NCBI GenBank assembly: GCA_020832445.1
Contig: JAFIEO010000041.1
Span: 1 to 64,000 of the forward strand
Direction of reading: 5' to 3'
DNA from: Paracoccaceae bacterium
GTDB lineage: Bacteria > Pseudomonadota > Alphaproteobacteria > Rhodobacterales > Rhodobacteraceae
DNA length: 64,000 nt
The position numbers and the translations under genes were made by a program. How positions within the stretch are numbered: position 1 is the stretch's first letter; each line of letters opens with the position of its first letter. Shown here in pieces: positions 19,430 to 42,444 of the stretch. Under the pieces are notes generated by a model. That model was not told the DNA's origin, did not search any database, and saw nothing but the letters and a program-made list of their open reading frames with translations.

Positions 19430-19868
19430 AAGGTGCGCGGCTGTTCATCCGGCAGACGGGGGCGTGCAATGTTTTGTTTTGGATTGCGGGCAGTGCGTTT
19501 GGCCTTTTGCAGACATCGGGAAAGCCCCAAGGCGCGGAGCAAAGGCCGAAGGCCGCCGCGCCATCGGCGGGCCGTCCCGCGGCCTGCCGATTTGGCCAGC
19601 AACTCGCCAAGCCTTCGAAGTAAGGGATATGCAGCCTGCATAAAGTGAACTTCACCAACGTCGGATCGGCAGACCCCGGCCCACCGATGGCGCGGGCTTT
19701 GTCCCCGCGCGAATGACCGCAAAAGGCCAGAAGCAGCCAGACCTTGCGGCTCCCCAGATACGCTTTAGAGTGTATCTTGTTGATTCGCATTCACAAGACA
19801 TGCTCTAACTTGTTGATTTCGCATGTTCGAGAAGCTCAAAACCGGTTCCCACTTTTGAGCAACATGCT
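19430..19868. other. Convergent intergenic region holding R1 and R2 repeats
   Basis: This 439-bp gap separates the 3' ends of the Lrp-type gene and the Tad-linked ATPase. It contains R1 copy 2 (19501-19728) and nearly all of R2 copy A (19765-19872). The first 70 bp show no recognisable feature. Confidence 0.8.
19501..19728 (+). repeat. Dispersed structured repeat R1, copy 2
   Basis: This is the most complete copy (228 bp). Outer ends GGCCTTTTGC and GCAAAAGGCC are perfect inverted repeats. Inner arms of about 30 bp (19558-19591 and 19665-19693) are also inverted. The centre holds two small palindromes, ATGCAGCCTGCAT and GTGAACTTCAC. It lies between convergent genes. Confidence 0.85.
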
Positions 19869-19872
19869 CTAA
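19765..19872 (+). repeat. 108-bp repeat R2, copy A (intact)
   Basis: It begins TTAGAG and ends CTCTAA. The first 44 nt can fold with TTAGAGTGT opposite ACATGCTCTAA. The second part includes AAAACCGGTTCCCACTTTTG and ends AACATGCTCTAA. It is nearly identical to copy B and has exactly the same length once the IS110 element is removed from B. Its last bases include the stop codon of the adjacent ATPase gene. Confidence 0.85.
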
Positions 19873-38485: not shown

Positions 38486-40126
38486 ATGAACGCCGATTAT
38501 ATCATTGTCGGGGCAGGGTCCGGTGGGTCCGCCGTTGCTGCCCGGCTGACCGAAGCAGGGCATTCGGTGTTGATTGTTGAAGCGGGTGGCAGTGACATCG
38601 GCCCGTTTATCCGCATGCCGGGTGCGTTGTCCTACCCGATGAACATGCGCCGCTATGACTGGGGCTTTCGGACGGAGCCGGAGCCGCATCTGGGCGGGCG
38701 GACACTCGCATGCCCGCGCGGGCGCGTGATCGGGGGATCGTCCAGCATAAACGGCATGGTCTATGTGCGCGGTCATGCGCGTGATTTTGACCATTGGGCT
38801 GAAAGCGGTGCCAGCGGTTGGGGGTATAGCGATGTGCTGCCCTATTTCAAACGCATGGAAAACTGGCATGGTCCCGCCCCGTCGCAATGGCGCGGCACGG
38901 GGGGGCCGCTGCATGTCACGCGCGGTGCGCGCGATAATCCGTTATTCAACGCTTTTATTGAGGCCGGCGCGCAAGCGGGCTACCCGCTGACCGAAGATTA
39001 CAACGGTACCGCGCAAGAAGGTTTCGGCGCAATGGAAGCCACGATCTGGCGTGGTCAGCGCTGGTCGGCCGCCGATGCCTATTTGCGCCCCGCATTGGCG
39101 ACAGGGCGCGCGCGCCTGATCAGGGGTGAAGTTGCGCAGGTTGTGTTCGATGACGAACAGCGCGCAACGGGGGTTCGGTTGACCGATGACCGTGTGCTTC
39201 ATGCCAATGCAGAAGTTATTCTGGCCGCATCAAGCATCAACACCCCGAAACTGCTGATGCTGTCCGGTATTGGCCCTGCGGCGCATCTGGCCGAGCATGG
39301 GATCGCTCTGCGCGCCGACCGCCCCGGTGTGGGGCAAAACCTGCAAGACCATCTGGAGCTGTATCTGCAATATTCCGCAACCCAGCCGATCACGCTGTAT
39401 AAATACTGGTCCTTGCCGGGCAAGGCCTGGGTCGGGGCAAGATGGCTTTTTACACGCAAGGGGCCGGGGGCGTCGAACCAGTTCGAGGCCTGTGCCTTCA
39501 TCAGGTCGCGGGCGGGGATCGATTACCCGGATATCCAGTATCATTTTCTGCCGATTGCCGTGCGGTATGATGGCAAGGCCGTGGCAGAGGGGCATGGATT
39601 CCAAACCCATGTCGGGCCGATGCGGTCCAAAAGTCGCGGTTGGGTGAAGCTGCGTTCGCCACGCCCGCAAGATGCGCCGCGCGTGTGTTTCAACTACATG
39701 AGCCACCCTGATGACTGGACCGAGTTTCGCAGCTGCATCCGCCTGACCCGTGAAATCATGGGGCAGGCAGCGTTCAAGCCCTTTATGGGCCATGAAATAC
39801 AGCCCGGTGCGGCGGTGTCCGAGGATGCGCAGCTTGATGCGTTTATTCGTGAACATGTCGAAAGCGCGTATCACCCCTGCGGCACGGCCCGAATGGGCAA
39901 AGCGGATGACCCCGCAGCGGTCGTCGACCCGCAGGGGCGTGTGATCGGCGTGCGTGGTTTGCGCGTTGCCGACAGCTCGATTTTTCCGCGCATCACAAAT
40001 GGTAACCTGAATGCACCATCGATCATGGTCGGTGAAAAAATCGCCGACCATATTCTTGGGCGCAGGCTTCCGGCCGAGAATCTGGCGCCTTCCGTGCACC
40101 CCGACTGGGCGCGCCAGCAGCGTTGA
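38486..40126 (+). CDS. betA: Choline dehydrogenase BetA
   Basis: This 546-residue GMC-family flavoprotein oxidises choline to betaine aldehyde, usually at the inner membrane. The FAD motif [21 protein letters not shown] is at the N-terminus. GMC signatures are [18 protein letters not shown] near residue 78 and [20 protein letters not shown] near 250. The active-site region [15 protein letters not shown] is near residue 455. It completes the betIBA module. Confidence 0.95.
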
Positions 40127-40204: not shown

Positions 40205-40308
40205 TTAGAGCATATCACGTTCATTCGCATTCACGAGACATGCTCTAACTTATTGATTTCGCATGTTCGAGAAGCTCAAAACCGGTTCCCACTTTTGCGC
40301 AACATGCT
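40205..40308 (+). repeat. 108-bp repeat R2, copy B, left 104 bp
   Basis: TTAGAGCAT (40205-40213) pairs perfectly with ATGCTCTAA (40240-40248), forming the 44-nt hairpin. The rest matches R2 copy A through AACATGCT, where the IS110 element begins. The missing final CTAA is found beyond the element at 41505-41508, giving the same 108-bp total as copy A. Confidence 0.85.
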
Positions 40309-40325
40309 TGTCTTATGCTGATGCC

Positions 40326-40555
40326 GGCTCTTATGCGAAGAAAGAGCCAGTGCGCGCCACGCCATTTATGGCGCGCACTGGCGGTGGCTTGATCGTCACG
40401 GGCTTGGTCGTGATGGACCGTTTTAGAGTGTGTTCAGCCATCGTCTTCGCCTGAGGCCTGAACGGAGTGCGGCGGATCAGGAAACGATCCGGGGGATCGT
40501 TTCCTCGCCAAACGAGCGGCGTAAAGCCCTCTGCGACAAGCATAGGACAGCGAAG
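40326..40555 (+). ncRNA. Candidate bridge RNA of the IS110 element
   Basis: The non-coding left end holds a 14-bp perfect hairpin (40346-40382, loop CGCCATTTA) and a 12-bp one (40479-40505, AGGAAACGATCC-GGG-GGATCGTTTCCT). TTAGAGTGTGTT (40423-40434) can pair with the insertion target AACATGCTCTAA, with ten Watson-Crick and two G-U pairs. GACAAGCAT (40535-40543) is complementary to ATGCTTGTC across the left border. In a circular form, TTGATC (41487) and TATGCT (40314) would make a promoter with a 17-bp spacer. The RNA ends are estimates. Confidence 0.5.
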
Positions 40556-41490
40556 ATGAACAAGGATACCATCGGAATATACATCTCGAAAGATGCGCTC
40601 GATGCGCATCGGCTGAGCACAGGCGCGGCAGCGCAATTTGCCAATTCTCAGACTGGTCTGCGGGCACTGCGCCGCTGGATCGGGGCGGATTCGCCCGGTT
40701 TGATCGTCTACGAGGCGACCGGCGTTTATCACGGACCCCTTGAGCGCGCTTTCGCCGGGGTTCTGCCGCTGGTGAAGGTAAACCCGCTTCAGGCACGGCG
40801 CTTCGCGCAGGCCTGCGGAACACGGGCGAAAACTGACGCGGTGGATGCACGTATATTGGCTGTTATGGGGGCCGCCCTCGATCTGGAGCCGGACAAGCTG
40901 TCTGACGAAAATCAACCTGCGCTCAAGGAGTTGCAAATCGCGCGCATGGCCCTGATCAAAGATCGCACCCGCTTGATGAACCGTCTCAAGACCCAGACTC
41001 TGCCGTTGACAAAGCGCCAGACCAAGTCACGACTTACGCAGATCACGCGGCAGCTTGAGGAGCTGGATGCCGAGTTGCTCACGCAGGTGTGGGCCTGTCC
41101 ACAGCGCGAACGCGCTTTCGATATTCTCTGCTCAATCCCGGGGTCGGGGCAGTCACGGCGGTTGCCATGATCATCGAATGCCCCGAAATCGGAACACTGG
41201 GCAGAAAGCAGATCGCCAGCCTCGCAGGCTTGGCACCAATGACCCGACAATCCGGCAAATGGCGTGGTGTGGCGTTCATACAGGGCGGGCGCAAGTTCCT
41301 GCGCGACGCGCTCTACATGCCCGCCCTAGTCGCCGCCCGCCACAACCCGGATCTGCGACAGAAATACCAGACCATGATCAAGGCCGGAAAGCCCGCCAAA
41401 GTCGCGCTGACAGCCCTCATGCGAAAGCTTATCGAACTGGCCAACGCACTCGTCCGACAAGACCGCGAATGGACGCCAAAAACAGCTTGA
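40556..41490 (+). pseudogene. IS110-family transposase (DEDD type), frameshifted
   Basis: The N-terminal RuvC-like domain has the DEDD residues D13 (IYISKDALDAH), E53 (IVYEATGVY), D94 and D97 (AKTDAVDARIL). The C-terminal Transposase_20 region has LAGLAPMTRQSGKWRG with the likely catalytic Ser. The two parts are in different frames: near CCCGGGG (41137-41143) the family sequence IPGVGAVTA is recovered only by a -1 shift or one extra G. The first frame ends soon after at 41170. It is probably inactive unless the shift is a sequencing error. An AGGACAG site precedes the start. Confidence 0.85.
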
Positions 41491-41504
41491 TCAAGACAGA
41501 TACT

Positions 41505-41508
41505 CTAA
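41505..41508 (+). repeat. Repeat R2, copy B, right-end remnant
   Basis: CTAA directly after the right-hand CT core supplies the last four bases of R2 copy B. It is too short to recognise alone; the call depends on the 104+4 bp match to the 108-bp copy A. Confidence 0.6.
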
Positions 41509-41697: not shown

Positions 41698-42348
41698 TCA
41701 GCGAATGCCTGCGATCTGCGTGCTGGTCACCTGTGCGCCGCCTTCCAGCACAAGAAGGATTTGTCCGTTGTTGTTGCGCACTTCCATAACAGGGGAATAA
41801 TGGACGGCCCTGGTGGTGGAAATGTTGTCATTCCCGCGGAAATCTTCGACCGTGAACAGATAAGACCCGTGCGGAAGGGGCGTTGCCAGATCATGGGCGA
41901 GGTCAATGACAATACTACTTTGCCCTGTGCTGGCCGGAACCCGCGCAAGTTCCTGCCCGTCAATCGAGGAAATGACAAGGTCGCGGCTGGTCGCCTCGGC
42001 AACGGCGGGGGCTTGCAGTGTCAACGGCGCGCCGGAGTAGCGGACGGGCGCATCTGTCGCCACTTCCTTGTTCAGCCAGTTTGCCAGATCAGAAAACATC
42101 ATCTGGTCTGTCAGCCTGCCAAGAAGCTGATTGGTCTGAATCTGCTGCTCGACACCGGAAAATGTTGCAAGCTGGACCGCGAAATCGGATGATTCGACAG
42201 GATTTAGCGGGTTCTGGTTTTGCATCTGCGTGGTCAGCATACGCAGAAACATCGCAAAATCCGACCCGTCAGTGAAAGCGCTTTTCCCGCCTTGGGGCGT
42301 GCTGCCGACGGCTGGTGCACTGACCGAGTTGTTTTCGATACTGAACAT
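41698..42348 (-). CDS. flgD: Flagellar hook-capping protein FlgD
   Basis: This 216-residue scaffold caps the growing flagellar hook. The N-terminal block DFAMFLRMLTTQMQNQNPLNPVESSDFAVQLATFSGVEQQIQTN is diagnostic. A C-terminal FlgD Ig-like region includes PLPHGSYLFTVEDFRGN. I chose the ATG at 42348, preceded by GAGAGAG. It lies downstream of fliK on the same strand. The usual next gene flgE is absent; the IS110 element and betA follow. Confidence 0.93.
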   Translation of the reverse strand: MFSIENNSVSAPAVGSTPQGGKSAFTDGSDFAMFLRMLTTQMQNQNPLNPVESSDFAVQLATFSGVEQQIQTNQLLGRLTDQMMFSDLANWLNKEVATDAPVRYSGAPLTLQAPAVAEATSRDLVISSIDGQELARVPASTGQSSIVIDLAHDLATPLPHGSYLFTVEDFRGNDNISTTRAVHYSPVMEVRNNNGQILLVLEGGAQVTSTQIAGIR

Positions 42349-42444
42349 ATTCTCTCTCAATGGTTTGGAACGCTTGGTGTGCGCAGCAGGGGGAATGGAT
42401 AAGGCGGGATATTCAGTTTCTTGCCATCTACAATTTGATGATGC

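What the first reader, a model, noticed from the sequence alone, without database searches (positions are those of the whole stretch)
40309..41504. IS110 element with a candidate bridge RNA and a circle-junction promoter
Read directly: the 247-bp left end has two perfect hairpins (14 and 12 bp). Joining the right end to the left end through the CT core would give TTGATC-N17-TATGCT (41487-41492, then 40314-40319), a promoter that exists only in the circle form. TTAGAGTGTGTT (40423-40434) can pair over 12 nt with the target AACATGCTCTAA (two G-U pairs). GACAAGCAT (40535-40543) is complementary to the left border. Established: IS110-group elements encode a bridge RNA in their long left end and use a CT core. 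Inference: this element encodes such an RNA aimed at the R2 repeat.
Basis: partly seen in the sequence, partly recalled or inferred. Interest (0 to 1): 0.8.

Follow-up and report, generated by a model that had tools for sequence, protein, structure and literature searches.

The report
Decayed RNA-guided IS110 jumping gene
This is a worn-out copy of a known kind of bacterial jumping gene that picks its landing site with a guide RNA; its relatives show which RNA letters read the landing site, and this copy appears to have lost both its enzyme and part of that RNA.

Summary
The element at 40309-41504 is an IS110-group insertion sequence whose long left end encodes a bridge RNA. A covariance model built from 32 relatives, without this copy, finds it at 40309-40549 (165 bits, E 6.9e-47). 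Across relatives two guides change in step with the insertion site: LTG (40395-40404) with the left half, RTG (40421-40428) with the right half (0 of 20,000 permutations each). The target is a dispersed repeat (12 exact AACATGCTCTAA in this genome, 0 of the reversed control). The junction promoter is conserved (31 of 41 junctions), but its -35-like box overlaps the transposase stop codon in 35 of 41. Two details fail: the 12-nt continuous pairing is half guide (TTAGAG), half coincidence (TGTGTT, no covariation); and the 12-bp hairpin is a 48-bp palindromic insert standing in place of five letters of the donor loop. This copy looks dead: frameshift, a catalytic acidic residue lost, donor guide broken. 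One oddity: REP-like palindromes stand at those same five letters in four copies from two genera. Known kind, new member.

The parts
40205..40308 (+). left part of the dispersed repeat (R2) that is the target, ending in AACATG-CT (core CT 40307-40308)
   Evidence: 12 exact AACATGCTCTAA in own genome, 0 of the reversed control; copies compared by eye; AYATGCTCTAA ends inside it at 40205 and 40238
40309..41504 (+). IS110-group element, decayed copy
   Evidence: both ends align with relatives; uninterrupted repeat copies
40309..40549 (+). bridge RNA region (covariance-model match)
   Evidence: 165 bits, E 6.9e-47 with a model built without this copy
40314..40319 (+). TATGCT, -10-like half of the circle-junction promoter
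41487..41492 (+). TTGATC, -35-like half of the circle-junction promoter; its TGA is also the stop codon of the second transposase piece
40326..40348 (+). 5' stem-loop 1
   Evidence: consensus structure, two-sided changes at 5 of 6 pairs in relatives
   Evidence: perfect 14 bp; two-sided changes at 9 of the 11 consensus pairs in relatives
40395..40404 (+). left target guide GTCACGGG plus core-matching CT
   Evidence: covaries with left flank across elements
40421..40428 (+). right target guide TTTTAGAG (AG pairs with core CT)
   Evidence: covaries with right flank across elements
40429..40434 (+).
   Evidence: no covariation
40462..40466 (+). ACGGA, remnant of the left donor guide ACGGATAC
40467..40514 (+).
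   Evidence: dispersed relatives of the palindrome
40535..40540 (+). right donor guide GACAAG, complementary to CTTGTC at the left end
   Evidence: GACAAG invariant in the 32-row alignment
40556..41146 (+). transposase, first piece (RuvC-like DEDD domain); tyrosine at the first catalytic acidic position
   Evidence: PF01548 E 3e-20; alignment
41089..41490 (+). transposase, second piece in another frame (Transposase_20 domain); frame change at about 41140-41150
   Evidence: PF02371 E 5.2e-18
41503..41508 (+). CT core copy at the right end and right remnant CTAA of the target

Best explanation
A decayed IS110-group insertion sequence. In working relatives the excised circle joins right end to left end and makes a promoter; the transcript is a bridge RNA with a target-binding loop (LTG reads the left half of the target on the bottom strand, RTG the right half on the top strand, both covering the CT core) and a donor-binding loop (LDG reads ACGGATAC at the right end, RDG reads CTTGTC at the left end); the DEDD recombinase then joins circle and target at CT. 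This copy was aimed in that way at one end of a dispersed palindromic repeat between betA and flgD. Since then it has lost activity: the reading frame of the recombinase is broken, one catalytic acidic position is changed, and a palindromic insert stands in place of the core-side part of the LDG. Shown here: element borders, RNA structure and guide-target covariation across relatives, repeat target, conserved junction letters, the lesions. Inferred from the published IS621 mechanism: promoter use, transcription, RNA-protein complex, strand exchange, and that the lesions abolish movement.
For: Model R1 from 32 relatives without this copy matches 40309-40549 at 165 bits; the consensus fold has 44 pairs, 29 with at least one two-sided compensatory change. 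Guide-target pairing: LTG mean 4.64 of 7 against 2.98 permuted (49 distinct LTGs), RTG 3.41 of 4 against 1.76 (32 distinct RTGs), 0 of 20,000 permutations each; the same with one element per 95, 85 or 75% cluster; pairing drops when the target is slid. RTG pairs, G-U included, at all of +1 to +4 in 23 of 32 distinct RTGs. Repeat target. Junction: at least 4 of 6 consensus letters in both promoter boxes in 31 of 41 distinct junctions, against a mean of 0.07 of 41 after shuffling letters. Lesions: frame change, Tyr where 9 of 9 aligned relatives have Asp, insert in LDG. Published: mutation of D11, E60, D102, D105 or S241 abolished IS621 recombination (PMC11208158, passages).
Against: This copy's own LTG fits its own target only moderately (score 4.0 of 7), so its aim rests mainly on the RTG and on the clade. 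9 of 32 distinct RTGs miss at least one of +1 to +4. The permutations do not fully remove common descent. In 35 of 41 junctions the TGA of the -35-like box is the end of an open frame of at least 100 codons, so coding constraint may explain part of that conservation. No RNA or circle reads. The frame change could be an assembly error in a 99-contig genome; the changed catalytic position and the insert would remain.
Confidence: 0.92

Rival explanations
1. One continuous 12-nt guide (40423-40434) reads the whole target top strand, unlike IS621.
For: 12 of 12 positions pair counting two G-U; 0 of 2000 shuffles.
Against: The left half shows no covariation and is fully paired in 1 of 47 rows, while the LTG does covary. 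This copy differs by one letter from the TGTGATC of its nearest relatives, which completes the match.
Confidence: 0.03
2. The palindrome in the donor-binding loop is a working variant of the loop and insert-bearing elements still move, by themselves or with help from intact relatives.
For: Palindrome at the same letters in this copy, L018, L148 and L179; this copy and L018 lie at different sites; the apical stem beside it is kept in the centroid structure, though not in the minimum-energy one; in G320 that palindrome has no third copy at E <= 0.01 besides its two IS110 copies; the transposase of L179 is open for 128 codons up to the contig end.
Against: The insert removes TAC of the LDG. Of the five carriers of a long donor loop, four have a broken transposase: window, L018, L102 and L148, which matches for about 42 codons only; L179 cannot be judged and has an in-frame insert beside its second catalytic residue. 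Among elements with both ends known, 0 of 3 carriers against 44 of 50 others have a long open frame (p 0.0036).
Confidence: 0.1
3. The element is intact and active; the frameshift is an assembly error.
For: Ends, core, target and most of the RNA are intact.
Against: A catalytic position is changed and the LDG is broken independently of the frameshift; the only other match of this RNA model in this genome (G000:C38) has lost the end of its transposase and no right end was found there.
Confidence: 0.03
4. The left-end hairpins are only an attenuator or terminator of the transposase gene, no guide RNA.
For: Strong folding (z -4.78); ISPpu9 has sRNAs and a structured 5' region (PMC8450116, search listing and start of abstract only).
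Against: Such a role does not predict the guide-target covariation.
Confidence: 0.02

Closest known systems
IS621 (IS110 group, E. coli) and its bridge RNA
   Same: Long left end with RNA upstream of the DEDD recombinase, target and donor loops with LTG, RTG, LDG, RDG, CT core, natural promoter across the joined ends (PMC11208160, PMC11208158, passages); insertion into REP sequences (PMC1525189, passages)
   Different: RTG signal reaches five letters beyond the core here against a four-base RTG in IS621, though longer RTGs are published for orthologues; distance of the LTG core from the next helix varies by a letter among relatives; this copy is broken
ISRm19 (IS110, Sinorhizobium meliloti)
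   Same: Alphaproteobacterial IS110 element inserted in REP sequences, 4 of 4 copies (PMC1525189, passages)
   Different: Sequences not compared here
ISEc21 seekRNA (IS110)
   Same: Guide RNA from the region upstream of the transposase that matches both target strands (PMC11187229, passages)
   Different: Published short form is 74 nt; length of the RNA here unknown
ISPa11 / ISPpu9 / ISPpu10
   Same: IS110-family elements aimed at REP sequences (PMC1525189); ISPa11 and ISPpu10 are among the bridge RNAs analysed in PMC11208160
   Different: Other hosts and repeats; ISPa11 is of the IS1111 group with the RNA downstream

Membership tests
IS110 group | DEDD RuvC-like domain plus Transposase_20 domain | tested here: met
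   PF01548 73 bits and PF02371 65.6 bits in the two pieces; NCBIfam 'IS110 family RNA-guided transposase' 94.9 and 92.6 bits, each piece alone under the whole-protein cut-off of 140
IS110 group | Intact catalytic DEDD residues in this copy | tested here: not met
   Tyr at the column where 9 of 9 relatives have Asp; residue roles from PMC11208158, matched by motif
IS110 group | Long non-coding left end upstream of the gene, short right end | tested here: met
   247 bp against 14 bp
IS110 group | Bridge RNA with target- and donor-binding loops | tested here: met
   Model match, consensus structure
IS110 group | Guides covary with insertion sites across elements | tested here: met
IS110 group | Intact donor guides in this copy | tested here: not met
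   LDG cut by insert; RDG intact
IS110 group | CT core at both borders | tested here: met
IS110 group | Promoter across the joined ends | tested here: inconclusive
   Letters conserved in 31 of 41 junctions but the -35-like box overlaps the stop codon in 35 of 41; activity not testable
IS110 group | Expressed RNA bound to the recombinase; circle intermediate | not testable with these tools
   no reads available
IS1111 group | RNA downstream of the gene, long right end | tested here: not met
   right end 14 bp
IS1111 group | Subterminal inverted repeats of 7-17 bp | not tested
   not searched for as such
REP-like repeat (target R2) | Short dispersed palindromic repeat in intergenic DNA | tested here: inconclusive
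   12 exact copies of one end against 0 control, 10 of 12 in the same context by eye; coding or intergenic position of the copies not checked

The most novel reading that the evidence does not exclude
A REP-like palindrome is delivered again and again to the same five letters (TACNN after ACGGA) of the left donor guide of IS110 bridge RNAs, by insertion with site preference or by conversion between elements. It cuts donor recognition while leaving the target loop whole, and so either silences the element or turns it into a form moved only by intact relatives. (Lowered slightly from my first estimate of 0.2, because one search shows a related palindrome in the transposase gene of one carrier too, so the donor loop is not the only place hit.)
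Probability: 0.17. Interest if true: 0.65.

Novelty: new member of a known kind. Interest (0 to 1): 0.38.

Why it matters
It extends guide-target covariation, published for IS621-like elements, to a group of elements in the alphaproteobacterial genomes searched, with letter-level assignment of the guides, and shows one of them aimed at a dispersed repeat. If the recurrent palindrome in the donor guide is real targeting, it would be a natural way of disarming (or making non-autonomous) an RNA-guided transposon, and a natural test of how much of the donor guide is needed.

Tried and rejected
Rejected: continuous 12-nt guide; a described Rfam family for the RNA (no match at gathering thresholds); the 12-bp hairpin as an ancestral part of the RNA. 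Tried without use: a loose pattern for insert-bearing loops (CTGMACGGAGTNCNGNGG, 394 genomes, 151 with a match) returned hits that I judge mostly chance; only part of the list was printed, and of the printed hits I looked at the DNA of a few: among those the ones in an IS110 element were the two known in G320. Weak model matches L168 and L169 carry no such palindrome. Plasmid search with the G320 palindrome gave 3 records, each covering 40% of the query. An orthologous empty site was looked for: the near relative G020 (94% in betA) lacks both element and repeat between betA and flgD, so the empty-site argument rests on repeat copies inside the genome.

The tree question: with the insert columns left out, this copy goes with L046 (87/93 support) and L018 lies nearest L044; forcing the two insert carriers together is rejected at p-AU 0.027. 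This was tested after seeing an earlier tree and is modest evidence.

Rows dropped: for the LTG test 22 of 93 rows (truncated or odd left ends), then repeats of one LTG, leaving 49 distinct LTGs; for the RTG test 38 of 93 rows without a usable right end or RTG, leaving 55 rows and 32 distinct RTGs. The better of two LTG offsets was allowed equally in observed and permuted pairs. For the donor-loop length 79 of 93 rows could be parsed. For the open-frame count 56 rows had both ends; I dropped 3 duplicates by hand and entered the counts by hand.

Full report
What was checked. The element 40309-41504 lies between betA (38486-40126) and a flgD-like gene (41698-42360, minus strand; gene names by my reading of the translations). 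One relative's match coordinates (G020) equal those in a Roseinatronobacter sp. S2 plasmid record, so the host is probably of that genus (inference).

Borders and target. The genome holds 12 exact AACATGCTCTAA (0 of the reversed control); two of the 12 sites are the two ends of one repeat (L012, L013). By eye 10 of the 12 stand in the same context...GGTTCCCACTTTTGAGCAACATGCTCTAA with few changes. The window reads ...CACTTTTGCGCAACATGCT, then the element, then CTAAG. So the element sits in this repeat, with a CT at each border. A related relic (L022, genome G017) lies in the same betA-flgD gap on the other strand, in what I read as another arm of a repeat copy, whereas G020 has neither repeat nor element there.

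Relatives. A DNA search of 100 related genomes (25 with a match, own included) and a protein search of species genomes (168 relatives, best 80 kept) gave left ends with the same plan. Thirty-two of them, without this copy, were aligned. Their consensus fold has two 5' stem-loops, a target loop and a donor loop; 29 of 44 pairs have at least one two-sided compensatory change. The model made from it matches the window at 40309-40549 with 165 bits, and 36 of 295 genomes of the family, 12 of 37 of the genus and 16 of 385 of the class, own genome included each time.

Guides. From 93 model matches in 98 sources of my choice I read LTG, RTG and flanks by alignment column. Examples: L140 RTG GTGCCTGAG with right flank CAGGCA; L058 and L114 RTG ..ATCAAG with flank TGATT; L112 RTG CTTCAGAG with flank CTGAA; L082 LTG CAAAACCG with left flank GAAAACCG. 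Permutation of flanks among elements never reached the observed pairing in 20,000 trials, for LTG and for RTG, nor with one element per 95, 85 or 75% cluster. RTG positions +1 to +5 carry the signal; +6 carries none and +7 never varies in the guide, so it says nothing. Sliding the target destroys the pairing (RTG 4.09 to 1.77 of 5; LTG 4.12 to 3.43 of 6 one way and 3.61 the other). Against: 9 of 32 RTGs miss one or more of the first four letters, and the permutations do not fully remove common descent. Three sites of one element (L049-L051) share GWGAAAGGCT|CTAA, but they share letters further out too, so they are repeat copies and no clean test.

It is well above chance in this one sequence (0 of 2000 shuffles), but it contains the RTG. 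The six letters beyond it do not covary and pair fully in 1 of 47 rows.

Junction promoter. In 41 distinct right-left junctions the -35-like box has at least 4 of 6 consensus letters in 37, the -10-like box in 34, both in 31, at 17-nt spacing; letter shuffles give both in 0.07 of 41 on average. But in 35 of 41 the TGA of the -35-like box ends an open frame of at least 100 codons, so the stop codon may account for part of it. PMC11187229 speaks of a promoter generated when the ends are brought together, and PMC11208160 of a natural sigma-70 promoter in RE-LE (passages). Promoter use here is inference.

This copy is dead (inference from three lesions). The transposase is in two frames. At the column where 9 of 9 relatives have Asp it has Tyr; by motif this is D11 of IS621, whose mutation abolished recombination (PMC11208158, passages). 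The donor loop, AACGGA-TACAG-AGCGG in L046, L016, L044 and L055, reads AACGGA-[48 bp]-AGCGG here. A relative with a 311-aa open frame exists (L046). The only other match of this RNA model in the genome has lost its transposase end, and no right end was found there.

The insert. Similar palindromes occur in 29 of 149 genomes of the family (own included), one to six per genome at the threshold used (forms), and in 12 plasmid records, but a 32-letter stretch of it is found with up to 3 mismatches only here in this genome. Among 79 of 93 RNAs that could be parsed, 5 have a donor loop longer than 50 nt: the window, L018, L102, L148, L179. Four of them hold a REP-like palindrome, each right after ACGGA and each where relatives have TACNN (the comparison for L148 and L179 is L140, of another genus). 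L018 is in the same genus at another site, with the insert 45 of 48 letters alike (counted by eye). L148 and L179 are two copies in genome G320 with a different palindrome, which has no third copy there at E <= 0.01. A more distant palindrome that I read as the same family stands in frame in the transposase of L179, beside its second catalytic residue, so the donor loop is not the only place hit. The two same-genus carriers are not nearest kin (p-AU 0.027, tested after a first tree). So the lesion arose at least twice if the G320 and same-genus palindromes are separate events, and perhaps three times, or it spread by conversion. Four of the five long-loop carriers have a broken transposase (window, L018, L102; L148); L179 is open for 128 codons to its contig end and cannot be judged. 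Among elements with both ends known, 0 of 3 carriers and 44 of 50 others have a long open frame (p 0.0036). I read it as decay, with the repeated choice of the same five letters unexplained.

Literature. The papers listed by the searches (each a capped list of titles and abstract starts) showed none on palindromes inside bridge RNA donor loops or on this clade; only open-licence PMC papers are held, so this is weak evidence of novelty. IS110 elements in REP sequences, including an alphaproteobacterial one, were reported in 2006 (PMC1525189, passages).

Verdict.

Noticed in passing
40467-40514; L018; L148; L179: REP-like palindromes stand at the same five letters of the left donor guide in IS110 bridge RNAs of two genera; not explained.
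   Followed up: partly
L216 (G320:C773), transposase on the minus strand: In one of these copies a further palindrome-like stretch lies in frame inside the transposase, beside the second catalytic residue, as if such repeats can enter reading frames without a stop.
   Followed up: partly
L255 (G017) betA-flgD gap, L022: A related IS110 relic lies in the same intergenic gap as in the window, on the opposite strand; G020 has neither repeat nor element there.
   Followed up: partly
L131 (G000:C38:20773): Second IS110-type bridge RNA in the window's genome with an uninterrupted donor loop, but the transposase end is gone and no right end was found; what follows looks to me like another transposon.
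   Followed up: partly
L134, L171-L173 (G315): Eight matches with the same RNA score; the four fetched show three distinct left flanks that share GGGCT, and the two readable right flanks share CGAAGC: a natural experiment on target tolerance.
   Followed up: no
L145: LTG appears shifted by one more letter toward the next helix than in the rest, so the loop length between core reader and helix may vary.
   Followed up: no
19798-19872: An uninterrupted copy of the target repeat with two ACATGCTCTAA ends lies in the same window.
   Followed up: partly
L021 / L060: Right flank of one element starts TGTCTTG, like the element's own left end; may be a tandem or circle-derived insertion.
   Followed up: no
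41488-41490: The stop codon of the transposase is part of the -35-like box; the same overlap holds in 35 of 41 junctions, a neat packing of coding end and promoter if the promoter is real.
   Followed up: partly
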